From positions 2,046,001 to 2,110,000 of the forward strand of contig JAADJZ010000004.1 in NCBI GenBank assembly GCA_011032825.1: 64,000 nt of DNA. Reading direction: 5' to 3'. This document shows positions 202 to 43,848 of this stretch, one piece after another. The DNA comes from Massariosphaeria phaeospora (lineage: Eukaryota > Ascomycota > Dothideomycetes > Pleosporales). The translations under genes were made by a program, and so were the position numbers. The notes under the pieces are model-generated. The model saw only the letters and a program-made list of their open reading frames with translations. It did no database searches and had not been told where the DNA came from. Each line of letters begins with the position of its first letter. The first letter of the stretch is position 1.

Positions 202-216
202 GCTGACCCAAACTAA

Positions 217-7390: not shown

Positions 7391-7669
7391 CAACAATTAC
7401 AAAGCTCATCATTGAGGAGCTGCTGATTATTCCCTCGCCACAGTTGCTATCAATCAAATCAATCAGGCCGAGGGCCTCGGCCTGATTTGACTGGTGTTTT
7501 CAAGGAGGGTGAATTGATTTGATTGACTGATTGCTCAGCAGCTCTCGGCCTGATTGAGATCAGATTGATAGACTGCAAACAGATTGATAGACTGCAGTCC
7601 AAATAGCGGAAATTGCCGGCAGATGGGAGGGAGGTTAGATTTGTATAAGATTAACTAGGCGCTATCACC

Positions 7670-8074
7670 CTAGTCCCATATACTGTACAATTGATCAATT
7701 GCTTCTTTAGTAAGCGGAGTCGTAGTCCTATCCTTGAAGCCAGCTCTGAGCCAGCATCGTACACAGTGAATTGCCGCGAGTAATTGAGGCGACAGAGCTC
7801 TACGCTTTGGCTCTAGGAGATCGCTAACCTCGCTAAACATACGCTCACATTCACAGCTAGATGCCAGAATTGATAGTACGTCAATAGCCAGCCTGCTGAG
7901 GTTGAGATAGAGCTGCTCCATGCCTATCCAATAGGCAATCGGGTCAATTAAATGGGGGTGATCTAATAGGAGATAAGGCTCTTGTCTCCAAAGCTCAAAC
8001 TCGTTACTGCTATTAGCAACTGCTCTGCCTTGTACTGGATTTGTGAGGAGATTAATGCTTGCTTGTATATCCAA
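7670..8074 (-). pseudogene. hAT transposase, C-terminal dimerisation domain
   Basis: An open frame of 134 residues matches the hAT C-terminal dimerisation region: IAYWIGMEQLYLNLSRLAID, then VLSILASSCECERMFSEVSD, which carries the SxxCERxFS signature, and LLEPKRRALSPQL. The catalytic RNase-H-like domain that should precede it is lost through the internal deletion, so the protein cannot transpose anything alone. The best-preserved stretch sits near the element's right-type end, as in the full-length copy at 24373-27411. Confidence 0.85.
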
Positions 8075-8578
8075 TACCTTAACTTTCTTGCGCAGGCGTT
8101 CTAAATCTAGAGTCTCTTTCAGCTTGTACTCACTCCATAGCGCCTAAAAAGCGGCATCTGATGAGGCAATCCACCCAGGTTGATCTGCCTATGAGTTTTG
8201 ACAGTAGAACTTCGTGTTTAGGTGCAGTATCGTAGCGGCGTAGTACGCTAGCAAGTTATTAAGTTTCTTTTAGTACTTTTGAAGCTTTTACTATGCTGCG
8301 TATATGTTGATAGCTAGATAGTCCTCTGGCGAGTTCTCCTCGTTGTAATTGACGCTTTCGTATTGCTGCGCAATCTGGGCAGCAGATGAAGTTGATGTGC
8401 TAACGTCGTACAACCCAGCGCCGCCTCTATCTATTGTTTTATCCTTATGACAGTACGCGCACACGAAAAATATCTGATCAGAGACCTAGCGGAGGCATAC
8501 GCGATAGCCATGGCTATAAATCCACGACTTCCGGTGTTTCTGTGTACGCAGCGGCGCCATATAGTCGGGTAACCGCTC

Positions 8579-8785
8579 CTAGTCAATCTCATCAAAGTTA
8601 TCTTCAAATCGCGCGTTGAGAGCTTTGTCGGGGGCAGGCAATTCACCCTCTGTAGCAGATGGGGCGACTGAGGTTGCAGCAGGTGCAGGCGATGGATCAC
8701 AGCGCTCACGCATCTCTACTTCGAAAGTTTGAGTACTCTGTGTATCGGCGGCGGCAGCTGCGGCGGCAGCGCGCCCACGGCGGCG
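8579..8785 (-). pseudogene. hAT-A transposase N-terminal fragment, alanine/arginine-rich
   Basis: Read from the methionine in MPPRRRGRAAAAAAAADTQ (near 8785), this frame has an Arg-rich cluster, eight alanines and then a Ser/Pro/acidic linker before a stop. The same N-terminus occurs in the other hAT-A copies (27012 downward on minus; 62058 upward on plus), so it is a family feature. An intron or frameshift probably follows, since the zinc-finger-like region continues in another frame downstream in the longer copies. Confidence 0.7.
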
Positions 8786-9192
8786 AGGGGGCATCGTAAA
8801 TACAGCTAATAGAGGCAATTGACAGTGATGGGCGAAATTTTGCGGGTGCCGAGTACTCAGGGGCGTGCGCTACACTAGTTGACTCATACGTCTGCCGATC
8901 GGGGGCCAAAATAAACACCAGAAATCCTATCACGAACTCGCTATACGCCAATCTCTACGGCCTCAAAAACGGCCCTATCTGTACGAGTACAATCTGGGCC
9001 CTTTGGCCACCTCAGATCTCTAATGGAGAAAACAATCAATCCGTTTCCAACTTTCCAATCAGGCCGGCCATCACTGATTGATTTGACTGCAAAAAATCAA
9101 GAGAGTGAATTGAATTGATTGACTGGTTACATAATCAATCAATCAATCAGTCGACTGCAACAGGACTGATTGATAGCATCTGTGTCCCTCGG

Positions 9193-13860: not shown

Positions 13861-14399
13861 AAAGTTGTTACAAGCGAAATTCACCGGCCGCCGGGGAGTC
13901 TAGACTCCCTGATCATATCGGTGTCTCAGTATTCAGCTAGGTGTTTCTCGAGGGAACTGGTTGGTAGTGTTTATTGGGATGCGATTTTTTGATACCTTGA
14001 TTGGGGTAGAAGGGGGGTTATCAATGGCGGGTCATTACATCACAGATGCTAACAATCAGTCTCGTTGCAGTCAACTAATTAATTGATTGATTATGTAATA
14101 AGTCAATCAAATCAATTCACTCTCTTGATTTTTTGCAGTCAAATCAATCAGTGATGGCCAGCCTGATTAGAAAGTTAGAAACGGATTGATTGTTTTTTCT
14201 ATTAGAGATCTGAGTTAGCCAAAGGGCCCATATAGCACTCGTACAGATAGGGCTGTTTTTGAGGCTGTAGAGATTGGCGTATGGCGAGTTCGTAATAGGA
14301 TTTCTAGTGTTTGTTTTGGCCCCCAATCGGCAGGCGTACGAGCCTGCGCGCTTCGTAACGCGTTTATCTAAGCTCAAAATAGCTTTTAATTGAGCCAAA

Positions 14400-15700
14400 G
14401 ATAGGCAGAGAATACTCTAAGAGGATCTAGAGATAATTAGCGCGTAGTTTAAGCTAGTAAAGGACACTAAAGCTAAGTACAGCGTTTACAACGACAACGT
14501 GCACAACTTTAACAAAACTAGCTTCTAGATAGGCGTAGTTAGCTCTATGAAAGTCGTTACAAGCTTTTAAAAACGTACTCAACCTAATCTTATCTAGCCA
14601 AGCAATCAAGAGTAGGTAACAGTTATTTAGAGCATTTGCGCCGTAGGGTACGCAATTCTGCTATTTATTATCTACAAAGAGCGCGTTTACATCTTAACAT
14701 AGTACAAAAAAAACTTTATACCTAGCAATTAAAAGCTTTTAGTTTCTAAAAACGGCTAGACAAACAACGCTTTTGGTTTTAAATAGTTAAAGCACTTTGA
14801 CGCGCATACAAAAGCGCGTTAGGTAAAAAAGTATTAGCTACTTATTTTAAACGGCTATAAAAGCTACTAATCTTAGAATTTTAAAAACTATTGCTTTAAA
14901 AACAAGATTCTTACGCTTTGCATGCTAGCTTATTTATTTTATATTCTTTAGCTGCTAGATGTAGTTTGCTTTTCGCTGCTAAAGCTAAAGTACTCTTAAC
15001 GCGTTTGAAACTTAGCGCGCTAGCGCGTTTTCTATATTAACAAAGAAAGCTTTCTGCTAGCCTTTAGAAACGCGTTTTTTAAAGTGTTTACAACAAAGAA
15101 CTGCAAAAAAGCTTTTAAGGTTTTAAAGCTAGTTTCTATTAACGCGCAAGTAGTTCTTAGTTGTTTTAAAGTACGGCTGCGTACTTCGCTACTACTTTTC
15201 GCACTAGAAACGCCGTAGCAGTTAAAAACTCTAAGCAATACACTCGAATTTAGATCGCAATTAAAGCTAGTACGCGATTTTATTACTAAATCGCTTACTT
15301 TAGCGCAGAGTAGCTTTTTTTAGCTTGTAAAAGAAGCTGAATTAATGCTGCATTAGAACGCGCTTAAAAACTACTATATTAAAGAGCTTAAAGATTAATT
15401 AGCAAAGATAACCAAGCGAAAATTGCGCAAACGGAAGCGAATTTAGCATAGTAGTACAATAGAGTATAGTAACAAATTAGCGCAAGTAGCTGCTAAAGCG
15501 TCTACAGCGCTTTAGCTATTAAAGAAAGCGCGTAGTAAAAAGAGTTAAAAAAGAGCACAACTAGCTCTACGGCGCTGTAAAAACTATAGTAATACAAGGC
15601 ACAATGCCCAAACCTGCTAAAAAAATACAAAAAAAGCTTTTGAATCTAAAGCTAGCACGACGTACGCAGGTTCTTTGTTCAATAGCAATTAATTTAATGT
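14400..15700 (+). pseudogene. Pogo/Fot1-like DDE transposase, hypermutated
   Basis: Despite many in-frame stops, one frame shows the Fot1/pogo DDE core in order: VHNFxKTSFxIGVVSSMKV (position of the first Asp), WVT-like and SICAVGYAI, a TNNAFGF segment for the family's TNDELG, FDAHTKAR, LLILNGYKSY for LLILDGHxSH (second Asp), then LDVVCFSLLKLKYS for LDVxxFxPL (third Asp). The first and second catalytic Asp are changed to other residues by G-to-A. It differs from the pogo at 57935-60045, so it is a second subfamily. No clean terminal repeats were found. Confidence 0.65.
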
Positions 15701-15889
15701 TCTTTGAGATAAGTTAGTTGTGCCAAGCATTTTTGGCTAGGTTACTAGTTTGGCCGAGTTACTAGTAGTTTACGTTAACTAAAAACGAACTTTAAAAATT
15801 CTATTACGAACTAGCTCTACACTAAACTGTACAGCTTTAAAAACACGTCAAACTATACAATACACAGTTTTCGGCTACTTTAGAGATTT

Positions 15890-16052
15890 TCTGCAGAAAA
15901 CAATTAATTTGTATCTAAGTTTCTAATTAATTAAGACGTTACTAATTAATTTGTCTACAAAATCTAAAGAAAGTAAATTAATTTAATTAATTTGTTACAT
16001 AATTAAGTAATTAATTAAGTAGTTGCAATAGACTTAATTGTTAGCATTTGTG
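15890..16052 (-). repeat. hAT-A left-type end fragment, inverted, hypermutated
   Basis: The tract TTGTTACATAATTAAGTAA, then GTTGCAATAGACTTAATTG and ending GCATTTGTG is a C-to-T/G-to-A altered version of the hAT-A left terminus (compare 61659-61790 reversed). It ends at 16052. No matching 8-bp target duplication was found for it, so it is an older truncated copy inside the 6.8-kb insertion. Confidence 0.65.
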
Positions 16053-16099
16053 CTAAGGCAAAGCTGCTAGCTTTGTTAACCGCTGCTAGCGAGCTACAA

Positions 16100-16390
16100 G
16101 CTTGAAATTAACTATTCAAATGCATTAAGCTTAACTTGAAAATAGTACTAACAATTTATTGCAACAACTTGTAGATAGTAGGTGTTGTTACTAAGTATAA
16201 GAACAAGCTATTTACACGACTGCGACATGTAAACGTCTACTAACATTAACTAAAGCAAAAAGTAGCAGCTAGACTTATATTAGTTCAATAGAAGCTTACT
16301 AATTTTATGCTAGCTAATAGGCTTACTAAGATTCTAGTGCGCTAGAAGCATGCTAAGTTTGTTTAATAGCTAGAATTAAAAAACGTTAAA
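16100..16390 (+). pseudogene. Ty1/copia RNase H fragment, hypermutated
   Basis: Translation aligns with the RNase H end of the copia element at 60700-60940: CNN for the CDN motif, GVVTKYKNKLFTRLRHVNVY, LKQKV, then MLANRLTKILV for the usual MxADxLTKxL ending. Stops replace Trp/Gln positions. The upstream polyprotein and the LTRs are missing. Confidence 0.6.
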
Positions 16391-16789
16391 GATTGCTTAT
16401 TGAAAGTAGAAAAACTAGATAGTTCTAATCTAGCAAGCTTAACTTACTAGTACTAGGCATAGAACTTTATTTGATTAGAGAAATTAGCTTTAGTTAGCAC
16501 TTTAGCTAAAAGAGTGTGTAACTACGTAGCTAAAATTACATAATTTTCTATTGTAGCAGGCAATGTGTTGCGGTTGTAAAAAAAAGCAAATTACGTAATA
16601 GTGTTCTAGTGCTACTTTCTTACTTATTGAGTACTTTTTACTTTAGCTGCATTACAGATACGTTATGTTATAGATCTTGCTGCTAGCTCTTTAAAAAAGT
16701 AGCACAAACACAATACGACAATAGATAGCAATACAAGTGTTAATTTGCAGTACTTAATTAATACTGCTTACCTAGTTACAAGATACGCT

Positions 16790-17916
16790 TTCTAAAGCTT
16801 TCGTAGTATTTCTAGCATTAACGCTACATTTGTAACGCTTTTTGCTTTGTAAAAATAGCTGCGCAGCTTTTTTTTTACTTTTTTGTAAAAATTGTAGAGC
16901 TTTTGTAGCGTTGCGAGCTTTTTTCTAGCGAGCCCGCTCTGCTGCCTTTTTTACTTTCTCTTTTTTTTTTGCTACCTTAGCTGCTTTCTGCGCTACACGC
17001 TTTTTCTTTGCAATTTTCTTTTTGTACAGCTTAGCTGCCTTTCTTAGCTTTGCTGTTTCTGCTTTTCAAAGTTGCTGCTTTTAATTTTTTTGCTTTTTAA
17101 TTAACTAACGAACACGTGCTTTCTTTACTTTTCTTAGTAACTAGAAAATAGCTCTACTATAATACTCCTAGCGCTGTTGAAAGTCTAGAGCTTTGCTCTT
17201 TTTCTTACGCTTTTTTTTAATAGATAGAGCTTGCTTAAGCCTATCTATTTTATGCTTAAGTAAGTTATTTTGAACAAATAAGTAGTAAAGCAATTGACAA
17301 AGCTTTTGTATATTCTTACTACTTTAATTACTTACTACAAAGCGTACAAGCTTATTGATCTTTCTTCAATCATAATTGCTAAGTAATAATAAAGAGTTTT
17401 CTTTTAATTCTTAAGCTTTAGTAAATCTATTAAGAATAGAATTAGAATTAGAAAGTAATATGCCTGTTGCTCTAAAAGAGCTAAGAATTATTAGTTTTTT
17501 AAAGAAAGTCTTCTACGCTTTCTAGAATAGTAGAAAAAAGTTGCTTTTAGTAATAGAAAAAAAGCCTTAGCTTGTCTAAAAGTAGTTTGATAGTTCTACT
17601 AAGTAAGCAGTTGATAGAAGCTTGAACATTGCTACATCGAGTAGCTAAAGCGTATAAGTCGAATAAAAAAGTAGAATAGCAAAAAAAATCTTGTTCTAGT
17701 TATAGTAGTTAATAAAATCTATAGTAATATAAAATCCGTAGCTATCTAGGATTAGAAGTTGATAGAATTGTTGAGTTTTCTGCTTTGTACAGCGATTAAA
17801 TACCTGCTTAAGCTAAGCAAGTCTAATATCGTTGTTCGTCTAGCTAGAGAGTAATAAAGTAACAAAAACTAGGTGTTCTTTTACCTAGATATTGTTTACC
17901 TAGCTTAATTAAATGC
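16790..17916 (-). pseudogene. Pogo transposase C-terminal part, hypermutated copy
   Basis: This is a mutated copy of the C-terminal part of the pogo element at 57935-60045 (compare 58170-59290), in the same minus orientation. The Lys/Arg/Ala-rich tail (KKKIAKKKRVAQKAAKVAKK) is recognisable. The copy is cut on its left in plus coordinates by unrelated sequence and on its right, at 17917, by a GTTAG-rich repeat, so neither terminal repeat remains. Confidence 0.7.
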
Positions 17917-18130
17917 CTTTGTTAGTACGCTAGCGAATAAGTAGAAAGTACTTATCAATAGGTATAAGTTAGGTTATAAGTTGCATAAACTTTAAGTTAA
18001 AGTTAAGTTATAGTTACTCTAGCGTAGGTAGAGGTTAGGTTAAAGTTATTAAAGCGTTAAGTTATAGTTTAGTTAGAGTAATTAAAGCTTAGAGTTAGAG
18101 TTAAGTTAAAAGTTACATTTAAGTTATAGA
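17917..18130. repeat. GTTAG/AAGTTA-rich repeat, solo copy of foldback arm
   Basis: It begins TACGCTAGCGAATAAGTAGA and continues as runs of AGTTAAGTTA/AGGTTAAAGTTA. The same leader and repeats form the arms of the foldback-like element at 41530-43015. Here only one arm is present. Confidence 0.55.
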
Positions 18131-18392
18131 GTTATGTGTTAGCTTAGAAAGTTGCTAAAGTTTAAAAAGTTATTACAGCTAGTTATTACATTTAAGAACG
18201 CGCAAATTGTATTTACAAAGTTCTGTTATTATAGCTACTATTCACGTACAAGAACATAAGTAGAGTAAAAAAAGTTGTATTACTACAGATATTAATTACG
18301 GTAGCGTAAAAGTCAAGCGCGCTTTTGTAGCAAAAGTAGCGAATTTTTTTTTTCTAAATTATTATTTAACAGAGTTATTTTTAATTGTAAAG

Positions 18393-18515
18393 GCCTAGAT
18401 GTAAGCTTAGATGTAGGTCTAGATAACAAGCTAAGTATAAGCCTAAATATTAGCTTAAGTGTTAACTTAGATAACGAGCTAGGTGTAAGCGTAGATGTAA
18501 GCCTAAAAGTAGAGT
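18393..18515. repeat. 12-bp tandem repeat, about 10 units
   Basis: Units resembling CTAGATGTAAGC follow each other ten times without gaps (CTAGATGTAAGC, TTAGATGTAGGT, CTAGATAACAAG, CTAAGTATAAGC and so on). Forward, they read as a tetrapeptide repeat of the type LDVS; in reverse, one frame reads as an SxLT-type repeat. They lie at the 3' side of the minus-strand hAT-B remnant, so the reverse reading may have been its Ser/Thr-rich tail. Confidence 0.65.
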
Positions 18516-18559
18516 TTACATACTGCGCTTAAAAGTTAAGTAAGTTCTTAACTTTGTTA

Positions 18560-21165
18560 CATAGTAGTTCTTTATTATCTGCTTTTGCAGACTAAAAAAC
18601 GCTGTCCTATCCTTTCTTTTAAGCAATACAGTTTTTTAATATTATAATTTGCTAAATTGTTTAGGCAGCAAGTTGGTGCTTTTTATTGCTAATAACATTC
18701 TTAGCAACGTTGAATTTGCGCTTAACTCTAACCTAGGCAATTCGTACTGCAAGTACATTTTTTACAACTTGTAATAAGCGTAGATACGTTTTTTTATTTA
18801 CTTGTTACTATTTAAGAATATTAAAAAAAGCACTAGCGCGTACGCAAGCAATGCTTAAATAAGCTTTCTTTTTTTAGCAAGTTAAGCTCTTTTCTTTTTC
18901 TGTTTTGTCTAAGTTAATAGATGAAAAACTGCTTAGCAGCAACTAAAGCAAAGGCTTTAGTTTTTAAAACTACTTACTACTCTAGGGTTTAGTTGTACAA
19001 AACGAAGAGATAAAAGTAAAAGCAAAGCGAGTATCGTCGTTATAGCAATCAAAGTAATTAAAAAACTCTTCGCAGTAGGTGTGCTTGTTTTGATTATTTT
19101 AAATTTTGTCTTAAACGCGCAGTTAGCATATAACTGTAATAAGTAACTGTAATAACTATACCTCGTACGCCGTAAGCTTTTAGCTAGAGTTTAAAATAGT
19201 AGCACAATTAAATAAAAACTTTCGTTTATTGCTAGTTCTTTTATAATACTTGCTAAGTTTAGCTTTTCTTTTATCTGCAGCAGCTCGTACAACTGTAGGC
19301 TACTTAAAAGTATTTTAATTTTCTATGTTGTTGTTAAGTTTGTCCTGCATACTATCTAGAAAGTTAAAAAAATAGTTGTACATAAGCTAGATATACTAGA
19401 CTTGTAGCTTGTAGTTTTTACTTAAAAAGTTTGTTGCGTTTTTAAAGTTTTTAAGCATATTAGTAATTAACTTTAAGTAGTGCTATTTGTCTAGTGTTAA
19501 TTTTAGTTGCTTAAAGTTGCAGAAGTTTACTTTTGCTATATTCTTATTATCTAGAATACTACTTGCACTAATTGTTATTTTAAGTGCAATTTCTTTTACT
19601 AGCTATTTGTTAATAAATTTTTAAATTTTAAGTGCGCGCTCGCACATATTGTAGGTTAAATTTTATCGTGTTTTAACGTCGCGAATAATAGATATCTATT
19701 GTTTTAGTAGCAAGTGTAGTTGCGTAGCAATAAACCGCTTGTATCGTTGAAACAACGAATTAATTGCTATGCAAATAGCTCAAAGCTAGATGTGTATTAA
19801 GCTGTAATAAAAGTATGTAATAACGCACTATATACTTTGTAAAAAAAGTTTAAAACAAAGATATTCGCTTGCACGTCGCTTAAATAGCGTTTCTATAGTA
19901 TTTTTTTTAGTTTAACGTTAGCACCTGCTAATGCTGCAAGCTTAAAGTGTAAAATAATATTTTAAACAACAAAGTTAATAATGTAAGCAAGACACAAAAT
20001 TGAGTTTTTTAATAAGCTCTAAAGTATGTTCTTTGCCTCTAGTTGCTGTTTAATAACACAACTAAGCGTTTTGTTTTTTTTAGCATTATTCGCAGTAATT
20101 GCTAGAAAGCGTAATTTGATGCTAGTGTTTGAGAGTACTTGCAGTATATTAGCAGCTGCAGCAGCACTAGTATGTTTTCCGCGTAGAAAAACAAAATCTA
20201 GTAACTTCTTTTAAAGCTGCTAGTTGCAGTTAACGTAGTATTCTTTAACTACAAAAAAACTAAGATAATTAGAAGCAAACTACCTATCTACCGCAATTGA
20301 GATCTTAGTTAACTAGCTAATGTTATTAAAAAGTAATGCTTTAGCTTTTTCAAATCGTTTATAGAACATTCTCTAAAATTTGAATTAGCTAATACTTGAA
20401 ATATTAAGTCAAAAAAATTGAAGAAATCGCTGGAATAAGAGCTGCTTAATTGTTTGAAAAAACTAGTTGCTATATATAACTACTCGTACTAGTTTCTGTT
20501 TAAAAGCTTAAGTTGAATATAGTAGTACAATAGTAGTAAATTAAAGTTAACGTAGTGCTAGCTGTAAACGAGGTTAAAAGTAAACAAAAGCAAGCGTTCT
20601 TTAGCAGGTCCTAGATTTAAAGTAGTTAAGTAAGTGTTTAGTTTTAATAGTTTTAACTGCTAGGTGCTAAAAAGCAAAGCCGCAATTATAGCAGAATACG
20701 TAAAAGTAGCTATTACTAGAATTAGTAGCTTTTTTAAACTATAGCTATACCTAACTAGTGCGTACAGTAGAGTTCTATTGCAAATTTGCTATTTCTAGGC
20801 TTAGAGCCTACTTAGTAGAACTCTACTATATTTTTTACGCAGTTACTGCTACTTCTTGTTCTATATTATTTTTAATATGCGTAAAAAGATATTTTACTAA
20901 ATGTAGTTTATTTCTTTCTTTCTCTTAGACGAATTGCTTAGCGTTAAATTTAAATAAACGAATAAGTAGCGAAAGTTCTACTATGTTTATAACAAAAGGT
21001 ATAGTACAAAAGCGCAGGTACTGTAATAATAAACTGTAATAATTAGTGTTAGAGTAAACTAAAGATAGAGAATAAGTACATTGCCAAAGAAAAACACGCA
21101 AATTGTTAAAAAAAAACAAAACATGCTTTTCTGCTTGCGAAATATTGCTAACGTCTAAGCGCAAA
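18560..21165 (-). pseudogene. hAT-B transposase remnant, hypermutated
   Basis: Minus-strand pieces in compatible order include a region for the hAT W-x-YL-x-IT block (YLKLITNMLKNFKNATNFLS), a Y-x-MY-x-FF segment, and AAADKRKAKLSKYYKRTSNK followed by ATILNSS and KLTAYEV. The last matches the hAT motif KLxKYYxxT...ATILDPSxKL, with Asp and Pro lost by mutation. N-terminal pieces reach about 21164. The sequence differs from hAT-A, so it is a distinct family. Terminal repeats were not identified; the remnant lies inside the 6.8-kb insertion and ends where hAT-A sequence resumes at 21177. Confidence 0.6.
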
Positions 21166-21400
21166 GGCTAAGGCAGTAGCCAAAGGGCCTATATAGCACT
21201 CGTACAAATAGAGCTGTTTTTGAAGCTGTAGAAATTAGCGTATAGCGAGTTCGTAATAGAATTTCTAGTATTTGTTTTGGCTTCTAATTGGTAGGCGTAC
21301 GAGTTAACTAGTGTAGCGCACGCCTCTAAGTACTCTGCACTCGCAAATTTTCGCTTATTACTATCAATTGCTTTTATTTACTTTGTTAGCTGTATTTACA

Positions 21401-23790
21401 ATAAGCTAACGTTTTACTCGCTGCCGTAGGCGCGCTGCTGCCGCAGCTGCCGCCGCTAATACGCAAAGTACTTAAACTTTTAAAGTAGAAATGCGTAAGC
21501 GCCGTAATTCATCGCTTACACTTGCTGCAACCTTAGTTGCTTTATCTACTACAAAGAGTAAATTGCCTGCCTCTAACAAAGCTCTCAACGCACGATTTAA
21601 AAATAACTTTAATAAAATTAACTAGAATTAGTTGCTTAACTATATAGCGCTGCTGCGTACACAGAAATACTAGAAGTTGTAGATTTATTGTTATAGCTAT
21701 TGCGTATGCTTCTGCTAGACTCTTAAGTAGATATTTTTCGTGTGCGCGTACTACTATAAAGATAAAACAATAAACTAAAAAAGCAGTAGGTTGTACGACG
21801 TTAGTATATTAACTTTATCTGCTGCAGCTTATTTACAAGCTAAAAAACAAAGCTACAACTTTACGCCGTTAGGCGAGCAGATAGAAGCACTTTTGCTAAG
21901 TAGCTAGCGTACAATACAGCAACTTATACACAGCAGCATTGTTATTCTGCAAGTAGTAAGCAACGCGCTAGGCAACTTTAACGTATAAAAGTTTTAAATA
22001 GCAGCTATTAAGTAGCTAGTAGCAAACAATTACTTTTTAAAGAAGTTTAAAACGCTTGCTTTTAAAAATTTGCTACAAATAGCTAATCTAAAAGCTCTTA
22101 AAGCGCTATAAAAGAATTATCAAAGTGTAGCTAGATATACAATGCAACTGTTTAATTACTTACAACTTTAAGTAATAAAAAACCTATTAAACGCGCTAAG
22201 TAAAATACACTTATTATTTAACAGCTAAACTATAAAAGAAAGCAAAAAAAGCTATTTTAGTATTGTTACTTACTACGCGGATTTAGCGAGTTGCATTTAA
22301 AATCTTTTAATTTTTCTTTTACAGCTATCTAGTGCTTATACAAGTAAAAAAATTGCTTTAGTAATACAAAAAACTCTCTAGAGCTTTAATATTTACTTTA
22401 AAAAAATAAAATACTTTATTTTAAATAACGCAGGCAATAACAACACTGCTGTAGATTATTTAGCAAAAGTGTATAGCTTTAATGCAAATTACTAGCAACT
22501 TTGCTACAGCTTCTACACTTTTAATTTTATAAGCTAAACAATTATGTTTAAAATAAATAAAAAAGCTTTTGAAAATAAAAAAACTTAGCATGCGCTTAAA
22601 AAGAAATTGTTGCTAGATTAGCGTAAACATAACTTGCTAAGTGTTTTTATAAATGTTTTTTACTATATTAAAACACTTTAATAGTACAATTTGCTATACA
22701 GCTTTGTACGCAAGAAAGCAAAAGCTCAACAAAAGCTATATAAATAGATTAAGCTAATTAAGCTAGTAGTAACTAAATAAAACTCTTTTTGCTTTGCGTT
22801 TAAGCGAGCTGTTGAGAAGCTTAAGAATTTGCTTAATGCCTATATATAGTACTATATTAAGAATACGCGTACAACTGCTGCGTACGCTTTTGCCTACGAG
22901 AATTAAATAGCTAAGTTTCTAGCGTAGATAACGTCAACTAAATTAAGCGCAGCAGATTAAAGTGTTATTACTTAGTACATTAAAGTTTTACAGCTGTTGA
23001 AAGTTGCTACAAAGCGCTTTAAAAGCAAAAGCAATAGTAGAAAATTTAGTACGCTACATAACGTTATTTCTACTTTTAAGTACGTACTTAACACTTACGA
23101 GCAAATTGCGCAGCAATACAAAAGCGTTAATTACAACTAGGCAAACTCGCTAGAGAATTATCTAGCTATCAACGTACGCGCAGCGTAGCAAAAGCTTTAA
23201 AAGTACTAAAAAAAACTTAATAACTTACTAGCGTACTACGCTGCTACAATACTGCACCTAAATACAAAGTTCTACTATCAAAACTTATAGGCAAATTAAC
23301 TTAGCTAGATTGCTTTATTAAATGCTACTTTTTAGGCGCTATAGAGTAAGTACAAGTTGAATAAAACTCTAGATTTAAAACGCTTATACAAGAAAGTTAA
23401 AGTATTAGATATACAAGCAAGCATTGATTTGCTTACAAATCTAGTACAAGGCAAAGCAGTTGCTAATAGCAGTAACAAGTACAAGCTTTAAAAACAAAAG
23501 CTTTATCTTCTATTAAATTACTTTTATTTAATTAACTTAATTGCCTATTGAATAGGCATGAAGCAGCTTTATTTTAACTTTAGCTAGCTAGCTATTAACG
23601 TACTATTAATTCTAGCATCTAGCTGTAAGTGTAAACGTATGTTTAGTAAAGTTAGCAATTTCTTAAAGCTAAAGCGTAGAGCTTTGTTGCTTTAATTACT
23701 TGCAGCAATTTACTGTGTACGATGCTAGCTTAAAGCTAGCTTTAAAAATAAAGCTACAACTTCGCTTACTAAAGAAGCAATTAATTAATT
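21401..23790 (+). pseudogene. hAT-A full-length transposase, start codon lost, hypermutated
   Basis: The sequence is collinear with the less mutated copy at 62058-63186 and contains the roughly 1.25-kb middle that copy lacks. The start ATG is ATA here (21401-21403). Recognisable parts are the N-terminal Arg/Ala-rich segment, a C-x2-C-type zinc-finger region (near 21660-21770), the LNNAGNNNTA segment (22425-22450, hAT motif LDNAxNNDTA) and the dimerisation domain (23560-23790) with SSCKCKRMFSKVSN, a Glu-to-Lys altered CERxFS. Many in-frame stops and Glu-to-Lys, Asp-to-Asn changes rule out function. Confidence 0.8.
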
Positions 23791-24040
23791 GTATAGTATA
23801 TAAAACTAAAGTAATAGCGCCTAAGCAATTTTATACAAATCTAACTTCTCTTTTATCTGCTAGCAATTTCTGCTATTTGAATTACAGTCTATCAATCTGT
23901 TTGCAGTCTATTAATCTAATTTCAATTAAGCCGAAAGTTGTTGATTAGTTAGTTAATTAATTCAATTTACTTCTTTTGAAAACACTAGTCAAATTAGGCT
24001 AGAGGCCTCGGCTTAACTAATTTAATTAATAGCAACTATG

Positions 24041-24372
24041 CATTACATAACTTTAGCTTTTAACTTCTAACAAAGTACGTCTACTTAATTTAAAGTCTTT
24101 TACAAGCTAAGCCTAGATTAGAAAAGCTACGACAACGTTCTTAAAGAAAATTTAGCTAAGTTCTATTCGGTAGACTAAGCTATGAACAGGATTTACTTCG
24201 CAAAACTTTTGCGAAGCGAATTCGATCTACTATTCTAGAAGAAATGCATTATCTAATTTCCGAACAACTAAATAAAAATAATAGCTTCGATTTTAAATAC
24301 AGCAATGCTAGTATAGCCTATTTACTTATGTTTGAAAGCATAACTAACTTAGGTTCTAAATACGCTATTTAG
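24041..24372. other. 332-bp spacer between two hAT copies
   Basis: This is the target DNA left between the two oppositely oriented hAT insertions. It starts with the CATTACAT target duplicate of the first and ends with CTATTTAG, the probable mutated target duplicate of the second. It holds a 21-bp near-perfect palindrome (CTTCGCAAAA-C-TTTTGCGAAG, 24196-24216) and an open stretch without a recognisable product. It is AT-shifted like the elements, so hypermutation covered it too. Confidence 0.6.
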
Positions 24373-27300
24373 CATAGTTGCTATTAATTTAAATTAGTTA
24401 AGCCGAAGCCTCTAGCCTAATTTAACTAGTGTTTTCAAAAAAGTAAATTGAATTGATTAACTAACTAATTAACAACTTTCGGCTTGATTGAAATTAAATT
24501 AATAAACTGCAAACAAATTGATAGACTGTAATTTAAATAGCGAAAATTGCTAGCAAATAGAAGAGAGGTTAGATTTGTATAAAATTGCTTAGGCGCTATT
24601 ACTTTAGTTTTATATACTATACAATTAATTAATTGCTTCTTTAGTAAGCGAAGTTGTAGCTTTATTTTTAAAGCTAGCTTTAAGCTAGCATCGTACACAG
24701 TAAATTGCTGCAAGTAATTAAAGCAACAAAGCTCTACGCTTTAGCTTTAAGAAATTGCTAACTTTACTAAACATACGTTTACACTTACAGCTAGATGCTA
24801 GAATTAATAGTACGTTAATAGCTAGCTAGCTAAAGTTAAAATAAAGCTGCTTCATGCCTATTCAATAGGCAATTAAGTTAATTAAATAAAAGTAATTTAA
24901 TAAAAGATAAAGCTTTTGTTTTTAAAGCTTGTACTTGTTACTACTATTAGCAACTGCTTTGCCTTGTACTAGATTTGTAAGCAGATTAATGCTTGCTTGT
25001 ATATCTAATACTTTAACTTTCTTGCGTAAGCGTTTTAAATCTAAAGTTTCTTTTAACTTGTACTTACTTCATAGCGCCTAAAAAGCAGCATTTAATAAAG
25101 CAATCTAGCTAGGTTAATCTGCCTATGAGTTTTAATAGTAGAACTTTGTATTTAGGTGCAGTATTGTAGCAGCGTAGTACGCTAGTAAGTTATTAAATTT
25201 TTTTTAGTACTTTTAAAGCTTTTGCTACGCTGCGCGTACGTTAATAGCTAGATAATTCTCTAGCAAGTTTGCTTAGTTGTAATTAACGCTTTTGTATTGC
25301 TGCGCAATTTGCTCGTAAGTGTTAAGTACGTACTTAAAAGTAGAAATAACGTTATGTAGCGCACTAAATTTTCTACTGTTGCTTTTGCTTTTAAAGTGTT
25401 TTGTAGCAACTTTCAACAGCTGTAAAACCTTAATGTACTAAGTAATAACACTTTAATCTGCTACGCTTAATCTAGTTAACGTTATTTACGCTAGAAACTT
25501 AGCTATTTAATTTTTGCAAGCAGAAGCGTACGCAGCAGCTGTACGCGTATTCTTAATATAGTACTATATATAAGCATTAAGCAGATTCTTAAACCTCTCA
25601 ACAGCTCGCTTAAACGCAAAGCAAAAAAAGTTCTATTTAGTTACTACTAGCTTAATTAGCTTAATTTGTTTATATAGCTTTTGTTAAGCTTCTACTTTTT
25701 TGCGTACAAAGCTATATAGCAAATTGTACTATTAAAGTGTTTTAATGTAGTAAAGAACATTTATGAAAACACTTAGCGAGCTATGTTTACGCTAATTTAG
25801 CAACAAACTTTTTTTAAGCGCATGCTAAGTTTTTTTGTTTTTAAAAGCTTTTTTATTTACTCTAAACATAATTGTTTAGTTTATAAAATTAAAAGTGTAA
25901 AGGCTGTAGTAAAGTTGCTAGTAATTTGCATTAAAGCTATACACTTTTGCTAAATAATCTACAGCAGTGTTGTTATTACTTGCGTTATTTAAAATAAAGT
26001 ATTTTATTTTTTTAGAGTGAATATTAAAGCTTTAGAAAGTTTTTTATATTACTAAAGCAATTTTTTCACTTGTGTAAGCACTAAATAGCTGTAAAAAAAA
26101 AATCAATAGATTTTAAATGCGACTTGCTAAATCCGCGTAGTAAGCAACAATACTAAAATAGCTTTTTTTGCTTTCTTTTATAGTTTAGCTGTTAAACAAT
26201 AGGTGTATTTTACTTAGCGCGTTTAACAAGTCTTTTATTACTTAAAGTTGTAAGTAATTAAACAGTTGCATTGTATATTTAGCTATACTTTAATAATTCT
26301 TTTATAGCGCTTTAAAAGCCTTTAGATTAGCTATTTGTAGTAGATTTTTAAAAGCAAACGTCTTAAACTCTTTTAGAGAGTAATTGTTTGCTACTAGCTA
26401 CTTAATAGCTGCTATTTAAAACTTTTGTACGTTAAAGTTGCCTAGCGCGTTGCTTACTACTTGCGAGATAACAATGCTGCTATGTATAAGTTGCTGTATT
26501 GTACGCTAGCTACCTAGCAAAAGTGCTTTTATCTACTTGCCTAACGGCGTAAAGTTGTAGCTTCGTTTTTTAGCTTGTAAATAAGCTGCAGCAGATAAAG
26601 TTAATGTACTAACGTTGTACAACCTACTGCTTTTTTAGTCTATTGTTTTATTTTTATAGCAGTACGCGCACACGAAAAATATCTGCTCAAAAGCCTAGCA
26701 AAGGCATACGCGATAGCTATGACAATAAATTTACAACTTTTAGTATTTCTGTGTACGCAGCAGCGCTATATAGTTAGGCAACTAATTTTAGTTAACTCTA
26801 TTAAAGTTATCTTTAAATCGTGCGTTGAGAGCTTTGTTAGGGGCAAGCAATTTACTCTCTGTAGCAGATAGAGCAACTAAAGTTGCAGCAGGTGCAGGCG
26901 ATAGATCACGGCGCTTACGCATCTCTACTTCAAAAGTTTGAGTACTTTGCGTATTAGCAGCGGCAGCTGCGGCAGCAGCGCGCCTACAGCGGCGAGTAGA
27001 ACGTTGGCTCATTGTCAATACAGCTAACAAAGTGAATAGAGGCAATTGACAGTGATAGGCGAAAATTTGCGAGTGCAGAGTACTCAAGAGCGTGCGCTAC
27101 ACTAGTTGACTCGTACGCCTGCCAATTGGGGGCCAAAACAAATACTAGAAATCTTATTACGAACTCGCTATACGCTAATCTCTACAGCCTCAAAAACGGC
27201 CCCATCTGTACGAGTGCTATATGGGCCCTTTGGCTAACTCAGATCTCTAATAGAAAAAACAATCAATTCGTTTCTAACTTTCTAATCAGGCTGGCTATCA

Positions 27301-27411
27301 CTGATTGATTTGACTGCAAAAAATCAAGAGAGTGAATTGATTTGATTGACTTATTACATAATCAATCAATCAATTAGTCGACTGCAACGAGACTGATTGT
27401 TAGCATCTGTG
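24373..27411 (-). mobile_element. Full-length hAT-A copy, 3,039 bp, inverted relative to its neighbour
   Basis: The right-type end (CATAGTTGCTATTAAT) is at 24373 and the left-type end, read inward from 27411, is CACAGATGCTAACAATCAG. Flanks are CTATTTAG (24365-24372) and GCATTCAG (27412-27419): five of eight bases agree and two of the three differences are C-to-T, consistent with a decayed 8-bp target duplication. The sequence is an inverted copy of 21177-24040. Mutation is heavy inside but drops sharply over the last 400-700 bp before 27411, where GC-balanced DNA starts at once. Confidence 0.8.
24615..27012 (-). pseudogene. hAT-A full-length transposase, hypermutated
   Basis: The start codon is kept at 27010-27012 (MSQRSTRRCRRAAAAAAAA), followed by an open Ser/Pro-rich N-terminus to 26788. 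Beyond that, stops and missense changes accumulate through the zinc-finger, RNase-H-like and dimerisation regions. The terminal segment 24465-24713 is open in a shifted frame only. The hAT transposase cuts and pastes the element through an RNase-H-fold DDE centre; here the centre is not intact. Confidence 0.8.
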
Positions 27412-33097: not shown

Positions 33098-33279
33098 TCT
33101 CATCTCATCTCATCTCATCTCATCTCATCTCATCTCATCTCATCTCATCTCATCTCATCTCATCTCATCTCATCTCATCTCATCTCATCTCATCTCATCT
33201 CATCTCATCTCATCTCATCTCATCTCATCTCATCTCATCTCATCTCATCTCATCTCATCTCATCTCATCTCATCTCATC
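33098..33279. repeat. (TCTCA)n satellite, about 36 copies
   Basis: A pentanucleotide run without visible interruption forms the outer tip of the left MULE arm. Frames through it (LISSH repeats) are artefacts of the period. Confidence 0.95.
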
Positions 33280-39239: not shown

Positions 39240-39790
39240 CACTTCAAAAACAGTTTAACTAGTAAATAGCATTAAAGCTCTACTTAAGCAATTGCGCGAT
39301 AGCTTTAATAGCCGTGTCGTTATTGCTCGCATTGTTAAGAACAAAATAGCTAATATTGCGTGTACTTATGCCAAAGTTCTGCAAAATTGTTAGCACTACT
39401 TTAGCTATTTTCTTGCTTAAGTAGGCGCTTGTAAGCTAAGGCAGCGCAATAAACAAGTTGCAAAGCTTACCGTTAGCTCTAACGTAATAAGCAACAATAC
39501 TAAAAAAGCTTTTTTTGCTGCTTTTTATTGTTTATTTGTTAAAGCTTAAGTGTACATTGCTTATTGCGTGTAATAGCTTTATAACAACTAGTAGCTTAAA
39601 ATAATCGTACAAGCGCATAACGTAGCGCGAAACGCTGTTATAAAACGCTTATAAAGCGTTTTTAGCTAACGAGTTAGCAAAGCGTATAAAGCGTCAAAAA
39701 GCTAGCTTTTTAAACTTAGAAAGTAGGTAATTATTCTTAATAAGCTACTCAATAGCTGCGAGCTTAAAGCGGTAAATATTAAAACTGCTA
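39240..39790 (-). pseudogene. hAT transposase fragment, hypermutated
   Basis: The minus-strand frame contains SKKSFFSIVAYYVRANGKLC, LTILQNFGISTRNISYFVLN and NASNNDTAIKAIAQL, the RNase-H-like core of a hAT transposase with the xFVLDNAxNNDTAI motif (Asp to Asn here). It is closest in this window to the hAT-D transposase at 45040-45350. It is cut at 39790/39791 by the 5' LTR of the gypsy element, whose insertion target it was. Confidence 0.7.
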
Positions 39791-40046
39791 TGTAATAAGC
39801 TAGAAGCTCTATGAATTGCTTTAGTTGTAGAACTTTAGTAGATCTCGAAGCTAACATACAGCGCTTAGGTAAGCTTCGCACTTCTTTAAGTAAACTTCGC
39901 AAACTCGCTAGCTTAGTATATTAACGATATATTGCTCGCAGCTACAAACGCTTTAGGCCTTTAGTAGAGCACTAATAGCTGCTCGGCAAGAAGTATATAG
40001 AGTTGCTTCGCTTTTGCTGTAAATAAACTTTATCGAATTTATTACA
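39791..40046 (+). repeat. 5' LTR of the gypsy chromovirus, 256 bp
   Basis: It starts TGTAATAAGCTAGAAGC and ends TTATTACA, so the tips form the inverted repeat TGTAATAA/TTATTACA typical of LTRs. The same start occurs at 63981. Sequence after 40046 (TTCTTTATCTAGAACC) does not match a tRNA 3' end I recognise; self-priming as in some chromoviruses is possible. Confidence 0.75.
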
Positions 40047-40559
40047 TTCTTTATCTAGAACCTGCTTTTCTAAGCGATTTTTTTTTATTTGAATTCAATT
40101 AATTTCTACGCAGTAAAGATTGTAAGATTTTCAAGAAGTACGATACTTTTAAAAGTTAACAATAGCTTACTAGAAACACTCTACGATACAGCGAAAAAAG
40201 TTTTTAAAACTAAATCGCTATAATAGACGGCACTTAGAATGAGTATATTTAAATGCTAGTTGTAGAAGCTCGCAGGCTAGAAAGCGAAAGCCGAAGTAGC
40301 AAAGCAATTAAAAAAGCTCTACAAAAACTAATAAACAACAACAAACTTAATGTAGAAACTTAAGAGATTTGTTTTAATGCAGCAGAAGCTACATATACAA
40401 AAATATTTGTTGCAAAACTCGTAACAAAACTACTTAAAAGAGTAACAAACAATTAGCTACTAGCAGCGAAGCTAGTTCTCGCAGGACTTTTAAATTTTAA
40501 GCAGCTAGTTAATAACGAGAGTGCGAGAGTTTAGGCACTTATTGAAATACTGCAAAATT

Positions 40560-41420
40560 AAATTCAGATTCTCTAAGAGAAAAAGAGGGCTGCGCTAGCA
40601 ATACTACTAACTCTCTTTAGTATTTCAAAAGCTTCTACGCTAATTACAAAGCGCAACAAAATACCTAACCTAGTTTAGTTTAACGAAACAAGGTTAGACT
40701 ATAGACAGTTTAAAGTTCAAGTAGAGAACAAAATGCTTAATAACGAGAATTTAATTAAGAACTTATGCAGCTATATCTACAACTGCTTAACAAAGCAAGT
40801 AGCTACTACTAAACTCGCCTAGTATTAGAAATACTATAATAAAATAGCAAGAAAGTTCTAGAAGTACTTTAATAGGCACTACTAAAACTACATGCGAGCG
40901 CAAAAAGCGCTTAACTAACTCTTTGCTTTTAGGCAGAAAAAAATGTTTTTTTAAAAGTACAATAAAAAATTCATGCGCTTTGCGTACGACGCAAAAATAA
41001 CGAGCAACGTAGTTACATTAAAGAACTAGTACAAAGCAAAGCTTCGCGCTAATCTACAAAACAAAATAGTTAGCGTTATTATCTCTCTAGTATAGCAACT
41101 TTAGGACCTAATAGAACAAGTTACCTAGATTGAAAAAAACCTAAACCGCGCGAAAGCAAACAACTAGTAGTAGATAGTACTAAATTAATTAATAAGCAAC
41201 ACAAAGGCTATAGACTAAAAGCTAACAACTAAAGCTACTACCTAAGCAGTCCGCGCGGCTACTAACAATAAGAAAAAAAAGCAAGCCAAATAAGCAAACA
41301 ACGCAGAAATAACGAAACAACAAAAGAATTACTTTTGCTTTTAATGCAGTTTAGCAACTTACATGTCTAATAGATGCGAGCTCGCAGCTTCAAAAAAGCT
41401 CGCTACAACTTAAAAAGCAA
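40560..41420 (+). pseudogene. Gypsy Gag, hypermutated
   Basis: One frame runs NETRLDYRQFKVQVENKMLN, then WKYFNRHY-like and KKFMRFAYDAKI segments, as in chromovirus Gag (the W/F-rich core that binds and packages the transcript). It ends with CFxCSLATYMSNRC (41335-41380), a CX2CX4HX4C nucleic-acid-binding knuckle whose His is Tyr here. In-frame stops stand mostly where Trp or Gln is expected. Confidence 0.65.
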
Positions 41421-41608
41421 CTTTTAAACTAGTTAAGACAACGGCAAAGGTTAAAAAAGTCTTCGAGTTTAAAAACTCGAAAAACTAGACACTCTTAACT
41501 AAAAGCGCGGTTAAGAGTAGTAGAAAAAAAACATAGTTTCTTTATTAAATTAGAGTAGTAAATGGGTATAGGTTAGGTTAAAGTTGAGTTAGCTTACGTA
41601 AGACTCTA

Positions 41609-41670
41609 GTGCTAACTCAACTTATACCTACGCTAAAACGTTTTAGCGTAGGTATAAGTTGAGTTAGCAC
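41609..41670. repeat. Perfect 62-bp palindrome
   Basis: The arms GTGCTAACTCAACTTATACC... meet at AAAACGTTTT (centre 41639/41640) with no spacer and no mismatch. It would form a cruciform or a spacerless hairpin. Confidence 0.9.
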
Positions 41671-42889
41671 AGACCTCTACAATTTTATATTTTAATATAT
41701 TTTCTTTTTATAATTATAACAGCTAGTTATAATAGGTCTATTAACCTAAAAGTAGTACCTATAACTTAACTTTAACCTACGCTTTAATTACTTTAACCTA
41801 ACTTTAACTCTAAGTCTGTGTACGCTAGCGAATAGGTAAAAAGTACTTATTAATAAGTATAAGTTGAGTTATAAGTTGCACAGACTTTAGGTTAAAGTTA
41901 AGTTAGAGTTAACCTAGCGTAGGTAGAAGTTAAGTTAGAGTAGTTAAAGCTTTAAGTTGAAAGTTAAGTTAGAGTTACCTAAATAGTTAAGAAACTATAA
42001 TAAATAAATGTAATAAATATACATAGAAAACTTAATGTTAATATAAGTTGTAAATATTATGTAAGACCTAACTACAACTCTAAGCTTTAACTACTCTAAC
42101 TCAACTTCAACTTAAGCTGCTTAGTAACTAGCGCGGGTTAAAGCTAGAGTTAAGTTAGAGTCTAACGTAAGCTAATTTAACTTTAACTTAACTTCTACTT
42201 ATTTACTAGCCTAGGTCTGTGCGACTCTAACTCAACTTATACCTAACAATAGGTACTCTCTACCTATTCGCTAGCGTATATTAAATAAGTTTCTAAAGTT
42301 TTGCTAGCGCTAGCTAAATAGAAAACTACTTACAGTACATGCAATTATTAATCAATCTATTTTCGCTTTAGCAATGCTTAACTCTAGGTGCACTACTTAT
42401 AGTTTTGTTAGTAAAAAGTTTTGTAAAAAAAACTATTTCTTGCGTATTTTAATAAAAGAAAGGCCTATAGTAGGCATTAGCGAACAAGTTGTTAAAGTTA
42501 CAAAAGCTGCTTAGTTTACAATAAACCTAAATAAGTACGAACAAACAGTTTAAGCGTACGTTATAACTAAAAATAACGAATACGATATTATTCTAAAGCG
42601 CTTATGAATAAACGAAAGCTAGGTAACGCTAGCTTCGGCGAAAAAATTAATTTTTATCTATTCAACTAGAACACGCGTGCGTACGCTAGCGAATAAGTAG
42701 AAAGTACCTATCGTTGAGTATAGATTAAGTTAGAGTCGTACAAACCTAAAGTTAAAGTTAAGTTAAAGTAATTAAAGCGTAGGTTAAAGTTAAGTTATAG
42801 GTACTACTTTTAGGTTAATAAACTTGTTATAACTAGCTGTTATAATTATAAAAAGAAAATATATTAAAATATAGAATTGTAGAGGTTTA

Positions 42890-42949
42890 TGCTAACTTAA
42901 CTTATACCTACGCTAAAACGTTTTAGCGTAGGTATAAGTTAAGTTAGCA
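42890..42949. repeat. Perfect 60-bp palindrome (second copy)
   Basis: This is the same palindrome as 41609-41670 with two compensating changes (CTCAAC to CTTAAC on one arm and the matching G-to-A on the other), so self-complementarity is still perfect. Centre 42919/42920. Confidence 0.9.
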
Positions 42950-43249
42950 CTAGAGTCTTACGTAAGCTAACTTAACTTTAACTTAACTTATACCTATTTA
43001 CCACTCTACGCGTGCGAAGCTAAGAAAAAAAAAAACTTAGACAAAAACTTCGGCAGGTGTTTGCAGCCGCGTTTAGAATAATAATGCAATAGTCTAAGAG
43101 AAAAAACTTTAGCGTTAAGATTTTCGCCGCGTTTATAGCAGACATTTAGAAAGCTTTTTAAACTAAGGTAGTAGTTAACCTACGCCTAACGCTGCTTAAC
43201 TAGATAAAAGATTAGTATACAGCGTTTATGCAGTCTAAGGCTAACAAAT

Positions 43250-43848
43250 TATTTCTTTACCGAAGCATAATAAACTACAGCATTAAACTAATTAAAAAAA
43301 ACAAGAAAGAAGCAGAGGTCTTATAGAAACTTTTGTATAATATGTTTAAAAACAAACTGCTAGTCTTGCAGAAGCAGCTTACTGCGCATTTAAATTGCGA
43401 GTTTATTAGAGTAAGTTGCTCTTAGGCCGAAGCGCTGGTGTTGTTTGCAAAGAAACCTAGTAAAAAGCTACGCTTTTGCGTAGACTATCGGGCGCTCAAC
43501 GCTATTACGAAAAAGAACTAATACCTGCTGCCTTTGATTCACGAGACCTTAAATTAGATTAGCTAGGCTAAATAGTTTACTAAGCTAGACGTTATCTAGG
43601 CCTTTCACAAAGTCCAGATTGCTAAAGGAAACGAGTGGAAAACGGCTTTCTGTACAAGATTTAGATTGTACGAATAGATAGTTTGCCTATTCGGCCTTGC
43701 TAACGCTTCGAGTACGTTCTAGCAGTTTATTAACTACACCTTGCGTAATTACATTAACGTCGACGCTTCCGCATACTTAGATAATGTACTTATCTACTTC
43801 GGAGGTTCTCGAAAGGACTACCGGCGACGTGTTAAAGAGGTTGTTGAC
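43250..43848 (+). pseudogene. Gypsy reverse transcriptase, N-terminal part
   Basis: Conserved RT blocks in order: [20 protein letters not shown] (43440-43500), YLLPLIHETL, FTKLDVI (first catalytic Asp in xxKLDLR), GNEWKTAFCTRF, GLANASSTFQQFIN and SAYLDNVLIYF (43770-43800), which stands for the YLDDILIF catalytic box with the second Asp changed to Asn. The hAT-D element interrupts the frame after VKEVVD; the RT continues at 46918. Confidence 0.85.

What the first reader, a model, noticed from the sequence alone, without database searches (positions are those of the whole stretch)
14343..27411. Repeat hypermutation follows a 5'-pyrimidine rule (YpC to YpT), not the classical CpA rule
Seen directly: I aligned the lightly mutated hAT-A copy (61834-62290) by eye with the AT-rich copy (21177-21630). 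Of roughly 78 C-to-T or G-to-A differences, all but about five fall on a cytosine preceded by C or T (TCA, TCG, TCC, TCT, CCA, CCG, CCC, CCT). The following base varies: A in only about a third, G in nearly as many. Cytosines after A or G (ACG, GCG, GCA, GCT, ACT) mostly survive, which is why these AT-rich blocks are still full of GCGC, ACGCGT and GCTAGC but nearly lack CC, GG, TC and GA. The 3' halves (63082-63420 vs 23700-24040) give the same picture. Known: Neurospora-type RIP depends mainly on the 3' base (CpA). Inference: this lineage uses a different cytosine-mutating activity or a modified RIP targeting preference, resembling the 5' context rule of APOBEC-type deaminases. Hand counts are approximate.
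Basis: partly seen in the sequence, partly recalled or inferred. Interest (0 to 1): 0.88.

Follow-up and report, generated by a model that had tools for sequence, protein, structure and literature searches.

The report
Fungal repeat mutation with 5'-pyrimidine rule
In the fungus Massariosphaeria phaeospora, repeated DNA has been mutated from C to T almost only where the C follows another C or a T, a different rule from the "C before A" preference usually described for this kind of fungal genome defence.

Summary
The host is Massariosphaeria phaeospora (Pleosporales). I tabulated all 16 NCN contexts in three repeat families and made an ancestor-free test in a fourth. In heavily hit window copies 62-80% of C after C/T, but only 3-8% of C after A/G, became T. 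In three lightly hit copies 175 of 178 changes are at YpC (175/2154 YpC, 3/2377 RpC). A 3'-A preference exists but is secondary: about 2.4-fold in a pooled rate model, against about 24-fold for 5' Y.

The process behaves like repeat-induced point mutation (RIP): both strands, confined to repeats, sharp against unique flanks, present in a linker between two copies. The genome encodes RID, a DIM-2-like and a DNMT5-like enzyme. No APOBEC_N match was found; the one AID/APOBEC-labelled hit looks like an ordinary RibD-like deaminase.

Best reading: a RIP variant with a 5'-pyrimidine gate, probably through RID; the agent is not shown. "Not CpA" is too strong, and the APOBEC likeness is one of context only. 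Simulation shows a pure YpC rule still gives a positive composite RIP index, so such rules could be overlooked. Whether related species share it could not be tested here.

The parts
14033..14040 (+). Left 8-bp target-site duplication CATTACAT of hAT-A copy A (partner at 24041-24048)
14041..14342 (+). hAT-A copy A, left end (element positions 1-302), lightly mutated (10 C>T/G>A)
14343..21176 (.). AT-rich nest of other repeats inside copy A (GC 0.31, YpC/RpC 0.31)
14343..15777 (+). High-copy repeat family (875 first-look candidates, 40 scored); not analysed for context
16781..17925 (+). pogo fragment, heavily mutated: YpC 169/269, RpC 10/248
18130..21176 (+). Repeat family 3: 520 C>T/G>A against GC-normal copy L073; YpC 484/679, RpC 36/736
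21177..24040 (+). hAT-A copy A, remainder (element positions 176-3036 aligned), heavily mutated: YpC 516/682, RpC 41/773
24041..24048 (+). Right 8-bp duplication CATTACAT of copy A
24049..24371 (.). Linker between the two inverted copies; its 164 bp with a relative on C20 show YpC 26/42, RpC 3/31
24372..27411 (-). hAT-A copy B, heavily mutated except its first 300 bp: YpC 500/719, RpC 33/797
39600..43800 (.). Second AT-rich repeat block; 39791-41554 is family 4 (ancestor-free test)
7440..9184 (-). Older hAT-A copy lacking the middle of the element; 88 C>T/G>A but also 35 T>C/A>G and 24 transversions against the consensus

Best explanation
A homology-triggered, RIP-type process turns C into T on both strands of repeated DNA in Massariosphaeria phaeospora. 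Its choice of target is gated mainly by the base before the cytosine (C or T), with a weaker and roughly independent preference for A after it. Shown by sequence: the 5' rule in four families, action on both strands, confinement to repeats, and the same rule in a linker between two repeats. Inferred: that this is RIP, that it acts in the sexual phase, and that the RID methyltransferase carries the 5'-pyrimidine specificity, with the DIM-2-like and DNMT5-like enzymes as possible alternatives or helpers. Because a pyrimidine before C stays a pyrimidine, and a purine stays a purine, under C>T and G>A change, RpC cytosines are lastingly spared; this accounts for the leftover GCGC, ACGCGT and GCTAGC.
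For: Sixteen copies of three families: YpC 4376/9681, RpC 348/10435, with 87.5-100% of each copy's changes at YpC (summed; 8 of 22 hAT-A rows, 4 of 37 pogo rows, 4 of 4 family-3 comparisons). Family 4 without ancestor: C/T-variable columns 226/261 after Y, 76/387 after R, 3 mixed set aside. C5+C9+C13: 175/2154 against 3/2377, p 1e-53. Copy A: 557 C>T/G>A, none reversed. Flanks normal: GC 0.485 (200 bp left) and 0.58 (200 bp right) against 0.31-0.32 inside. Few changes in the first 300 bp of copy B, 6-25% of YpC against 68-94% beyond 600 bp until the last 300 bp. Linker follows the rule. RID present with the conserved methylase columns; DIM-2-like gene present.
Against: No genetics: dependence on RID, on sex or on repeat homology was not tested. 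CpA, the usual RIP mark, is only second. No substitution in RID stands out. End weakening is not general: C13 and the 61659 copy are most mutated in their 3' third. C12 has a 103:51 strand skew, C51_75236 has too few strand runs (p 0.03), and heavy copies too (p 0.0005 or less against local availability in copies A and B). Diverged older hAT-A copies show only 2.7-3.3-fold (136/1012 against 57/1127; 204/1262 against 65/1324) and pogo singletons 2.6-fold with no 3'-A effect; both measures are diluted or biased. In the two heavy pogo copies position +2 carries almost as much information as +1 (0.026 and 0.030 bits).
Confidence: 0.78

Rival explanations
1. A separate AID/APOBEC-like DNA cytosine deaminase, brought to repeats, sets the 5'-pyrimidine context.
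For: TpC plus CpC is the context of APOBEC3-type enzymes (recalled). A RibD-like protein scores 202 bits with PF18785 'Invertebrate-AID/APOBEC-deaminase'.
Against: PF08210 APOBEC_N: no match up to E 10. PF18785 has one match in the genome, a protein found throughout the 120 listed relatives, mostly Pleosporales where named, nearest solved chains 7drz/7dry (recalled to be a fungal Rib2 riboflavin enzyme). Strands interleaved in C5, C9, C13. One of six PF00383 loci (C26) was not examined, and an unknown deaminase family would not be found.
Confidence: 0.08
2. Methylation by the DIM-2-like or DNMT5-like enzyme, followed by deamination or by repair that spares RpC, produces the rule without RID.
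For: Both genes are present. The linker is mutated by the same rule, and in Neurospora linker mutation nearly vanishes without dim-2 (PMC11969663, passages).
Against: Dim2-driven change in Zymoseptoria is at CpA (PMC8016269, passages). The whole repeat body is saturated, which in Neurospora repeat-linker-repeat tests needs RID (PMC11969663, passages). No methylation data exist here.
Confidence: 0.11
3. Ultraviolet damage at dipyrimidines, which also gives C>T after C or T.
For: The UV mutation signature is C>T at TpC and CpC (recalled).
Against: Changes stop at repeat borders while adjoining unique DNA is normal, and most YpC sites of a heavy copy are changed.
Confidence: 0.01
4. Artefact of the reference copy: it had lost its CpA sites, or its contexts are biased.
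Against: The hAT-A consensus keeps about 200 RpCpA sites, which survive (changed 0/197 in C9, 29/190 in copy A). Family 3 uses one GC-normal copy and family 4 no ancestor, with the same result.
Confidence: 0.01

Closest known systems
Classical RIP of ascomycetes (Neurospora crassa; Zymoseptoria tritici)
   Same: C>T on both strands of repeats, sharp repeat borders, linker involvement, RID and DIM-2 homologues, some preference for CpA
   Different: Dominant base is 5' pyrimidine; CpA is 97 of 178 changes in C5+C9+C13, against 240 of 242 in Z. tritici crosses (PMC10294615, passages)
RIP-like mutation in Microbotryum (TpCpG)
   Same: A 5' base takes part in the target
   Different: There the 3' G is needed too and T alone is named at 5' (PMC4352252 and PMC2621366, passages); here C or T at 5' with any base after
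APOBEC3-type deaminases (context only, recalled)
   Same: TpC and CpC targets
   Different: No APOBEC_N match in the genome; strands interleaved in the light copies; confined to repeats

Membership tests
RIP in the broad sense | C>T changes on both strands, confined to repeated DNA | tested here: met
RIP in the broad sense | RID/Masc1-type methyltransferase gene present | tested here: met
RIP in the broad sense | Action before meiosis in the sexual phase | not testable with these tools
   needs crosses
RIP in the broad sense | Mutation needs RID (or DIM-2) | not testable with these tools
   needs gene deletions
Classical CpA-type RIP | 3' A is the dominant context | tested here: not met
   3' A 2.4-fold against 5' Y 24-fold; CpA dominance 0.50-1.41 over 16 copies, 2.13 for family X0 of P. 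nodorum (PMC2621366, passages)
AID/APOBEC deaminase mutagenesis | YpC context | tested here: met
AID/APOBEC deaminase mutagenesis | An APOBEC-family gene in the genome | tested here: not met
   PF08210 none; PF18785 one match, a RibD-like protein
AID/APOBEC deaminase mutagenesis | Strand-coordinated clusters | tested here: inconclusive
   Absent in C5, C9, C13 (p 0.41-0.64); C51_75236 p 0.03; heavy copies have too few runs, partly from pyrimidine tracts; C12 strand skew 103:51

The most novel reading that the evidence does not exclude
The two layered preferences (strong 5' pyrimidine, weaker 3' A, acting roughly independently) are the marks of two enzymes: a RID-type methyltransferase with the usual CpA leaning, and a separate cytosine or 5-methylcytosine deaminase that requires YpC. 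RIP in this lineage would then have a distinct deamination step, and the context rule would expose it.
Probability: 0.15. Interest if true: 0.92.

Novelty: new variant of a known kind. Interest (0 to 1): 0.74.

Why it matters
In the passages seen here RIP is described by the base after the cytosine, usually A. The RIPCAL paper says its tool cannot detect a tri-nucleotide bias (PMC2621366), and the common indices use ApC as the unmutated control, which is just what a 5'-pyrimidine rule spares. In simulation a pure YpC rule with no 3' preference gives a positive composite index (0.50-1.00) and a high product index (1.55-1.87), while the substrate index stays above the 0.75 cut-off (0.86-1.11). 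So such a rule may be counted as ordinary RIP or missed, and in neither case recognised. GpC obs/exp near 3 with CC and TC depleted is a simple diagnostic. A strong change of context in one lineage also offers a handle on an open question: which part of the RIP machinery sets the context, and whether methylation and deamination are one step or two.

Tried and rejected
Reference artefact: rejected with a consensus ancestor, a single GC-normal copy and an ancestor-free test. UV damage: rejected on repeat confinement. APOBEC-like gene: PF08210 none; PF00383 gave 8 matches at 6 loci, of which 5 were examined and resemble tRNA-adenosine, dCMP-type, cytidine and RibD-like deaminases. A specificity change in RID: 7 substitutions at columns at least 85% conserved among 18 relatives, none compelling; the residue after the catalytic cysteine is N here and C, K or Q in those 18. 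Structure prediction was not run, since it would not show base contacts. Singleton test in pogo: biased, because sites changed in many copies are left out. Literature: ten searches ran; I saw listings, and passages found by term in 15 papers, and no whole paper; none of these reports a 5'-pyrimidine rule in an ascomycete. One search (species name) listed 4 papers, none on RIP by title. Two papers on Neurospora RIP were not held. No other fungal genome could be searched, so the spread of the rule is unknown.

Rows dropped: hAT-A hits under 75% identity; pogo hits under 78% or under 300 bp. The pooled model uses 8 of 22 hAT-A rows and 4 of 37 pogo rows, chosen because their differences are mostly C>T/G>A. 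tabulates 15 of 22 hAT-A rows. Four of the eight pooled hAT-A copies (C5, C9, C12, C13) are also among the nine behind the consensus.
Full report
WHAT IS THERE. The window is C34:2046001-2110000 of a 42.1 Mb genome in 51 contigs. The RID protein searched from contig C50 is 100% identical to a protein of Massariosphaeria phaeospora whose longest contig has the length of C50, 1,652,558 bases; the species is in the Pleosporales. The finding's block consists of a hAT-A copy (A) at 14041-24040, flanked by the 8-bp duplication CATTACAT, with a nest of other repeats inside it (14343-21176); a 323-bp linker; and an inverted second copy (B) at 24372-27411. hAT-A positions 176-302 occur on both sides of the nest, which I cannot explain.

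THE OBSERVATION. With the majority of nine copies as ancestor, copy A has 557 C>T/G>A, no reverse change and one transversion; copy B has 533, one and three. Copy A by 5' base: A 23/305, C 259/324, G 18/468, T 257/358; by 3' base: A 204/387, C 100/325, G 123/342, T 130/401.

GENERALITY. Sixteen copies of three families in the pooled model give YpC 4376/9681 and RpC 348/10435, and 87.5-100% of each copy's changes lie at YpC (sums). Family 3 against one GC-normal copy: YpC 447-520 of 678-679, RpC 34-58 of 736 in four copies. Family 4, in which all four copies compared are AT-rich, was tested without an ancestor: C/T-variable columns 226/261 after Y and 76/387 after R, 3 mixed set aside. The rule is therefore not a property of one element. 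Results on the other side: diverged older hAT-A copies show 2.7- and 3.3-fold only (136/1012 against 57/1127; 204/1262 against 65/1324), and pogo singletons 2.6-fold (71/9667 against 32/11299) with no 3'-A effect. The first mixes in differences of subgroups; the second leaves out sites changed in many copies.

HOW STRONG, AND WHAT OF CpA. In the two heavy hAT-A copies the base at -1 carries 0.408 bits about mutation, +1 carries 0.020, and the other six positions from -4 to +4 carry at most 0.0052. In the two heavy pogo copies the values are 0.232 at -1, 0.030 at +1 and 0.026 at +2, so there +2 matters as much as +1. Over five sets of copies the odds ratio for 5' Y is 10-65 and for 3' A (against T) 2.1-4.7. 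The rate model gives 5' Y/R of 25, 14.6 and 27 and 3' A against the rest of 2.1, 2.6 and 2.9 for hAT-A, pogo and family 3. In C5, C9 and C13 together: YpCpA 94/653, YpC before other bases 81/1501, RpCpA 3/597, RpC before other bases 0/1780. The 3'-A effect is real (odds ratio 2.9, p 2e-11) and also shows within the rare RpC changes (copy A: RpCpA 29/190, other RpC 12/583), as expected of two independent preferences. The title should read '5' pyrimidine first, CpA second'.

HOW IT WORKS. The pattern is that of RIP. Unique flanks are normal, GC 0.485 over 200 bp on the left and 0.58 over 200 bp on the right, against 0.31-0.32 inside. Copy B is sparsely changed in its first 300 bp (6-25% of YpC) and densely beyond 600 bp. 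Three copies (C51_b, C1_2535542, C34_2010495) are sparse in their last 500 bp or so, but C13 and the 61659 copy are densest in their 3' third, so weakness at the ends is common and not universal. Changes on the two strands are interleaved at random in C5, C9 and C13 (p 0.41-0.64); C51_75236 (p 0.03), the heavy copies and the 103:51 skew of C12 depart from this. The linker, compared with a 164-bp relative on C20, has 29 of 32 differences as C>T/G>A, with YpC 26/42 and RpC 3/31, p 7e-6; it is thus not strictly single-copy. In Neurospora, linker mutation between repeats nearly vanishes without dim-2 (PMC11969663, passages).

MACHINERY. PF00145 has four matches at three places: RID on C50; a protein with BAH and methylase domains on C1, DIM-2-like; and on C23 a methylase followed by two SNF2-related pieces, DNMT5-like. 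The names DIM-2 and DNMT5 rest on domain order, from recall. PF08210 (APOBEC_N) finds nothing up to E 10. PF00383 finds eight matches at six loci, of which five were examined. The RibD-like protein matches PF18785, named for AID/APOBEC deaminases of invertebrates, with 202 bits, but relatives appear throughout the 120 of 1686 listed, and the nearest solved chains are 7drz and 7dry, which I recall as a fungal Rib2 enzyme. The simplest agent is RID with a shifted specificity. That is inference.

COMPARISON WITH PRINT (passages only). Z. tritici crosses: 240 of 242 changes in the duplicated region at CpA (PMC10294615). A survey of 1,239 fungi: RIP-like defences share a CpA preference (PMC12543289). 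P. nodorum: CpA dominant, and RIPCAL cannot detect a tri-nucleotide bias (PMC2621366). Colletotrichum truncatum: CpA or CpT by family (PMC6180176). Ganoderma: CpG (PMC4457147). Microbotryum: TpCpG (PMC4352252). None of the passages seen gives a 5'-pyrimidine rule in an ascomycete. Statements of an A/T preference before C in Magnaporthe or Fusarium are recalled only. CpA preference varies among cases called RIP, so I treat it as typical and not as defining; the process is not CpA-type RIP, and its place in RIP in the broad sense still lacks the genetic tests.

WHY IT COULD BE OVERLOOKED. A simulated pure YpC rule on three ancestors gives composite RIP indices of 0.50-1.00 and product indices of 1.55-1.87, with CpA obs/exp of 0.93-1.06; its substrate index, 0.86-1.11, is above the 0.75 cut-off (cut-offs as quoted in PMC7882544 and PMC6963459, passages). 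The unmutated family-3 copy already has a composite of 0.08. The real blocks give composites of 1.42 (14343-21176), 1.18 (copy A remainder) and 1.15 (copy B), with substrate 0.67, 0.78 and 0.81. A CpA rule gives CpA 0.15-0.16 and GpC 1.0-1.4; a YpC rule gives GpC 2.7-3.1; the window blocks show GpC 2.2-2.9.

VERDICT. Observation confirmed, interpretation partly supported: a RIP variant with a dominant 5'-pyrimidine gate, not found in print by the searches made here, with agent and phylogenetic range open.

Noticed in passing
14216-14342 and 21177-21303: A 127-bp stretch (hAT-A positions 176-302) stands on both sides of the nested insert 14343-21176, like an oversized target duplication; unexplained.
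   Followed up: partly
33097-33487 and 36946-37336: A 391-bp inverted repeat, 99% identical, with 3.5 kb between the arms and full of intact TpC sites: a near-identical pair of this length has escaped mutation. Its last 100 bp or so has some 27 further, mostly diverged relatives in the genome.
   Followed up: partly
genome C48:1102849-1103250 (L066, P0121): A widely conserved RibD-like deaminase scores 202 bits with the Pfam family 'Invertebrate-AID/APOBEC-deaminase'; probably a reach of that profile, which could mislead annotation.
   Followed up: yes
24049-24371: The linker between two inverted hAT-A copies is mutated by the same rule, while its short relative on C20 has normal GC; a natural repeat-linker-repeat case.
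   Followed up: yes
1428-3129: A field of short imperfect direct repeats, about 60-80 nt, with normal GC.
   Followed up: no
41610-41670 and 42890-42950: Two 61-nt near-palindromes inside the second AT-rich block, as in small inverted-repeat elements.
   Followed up: no
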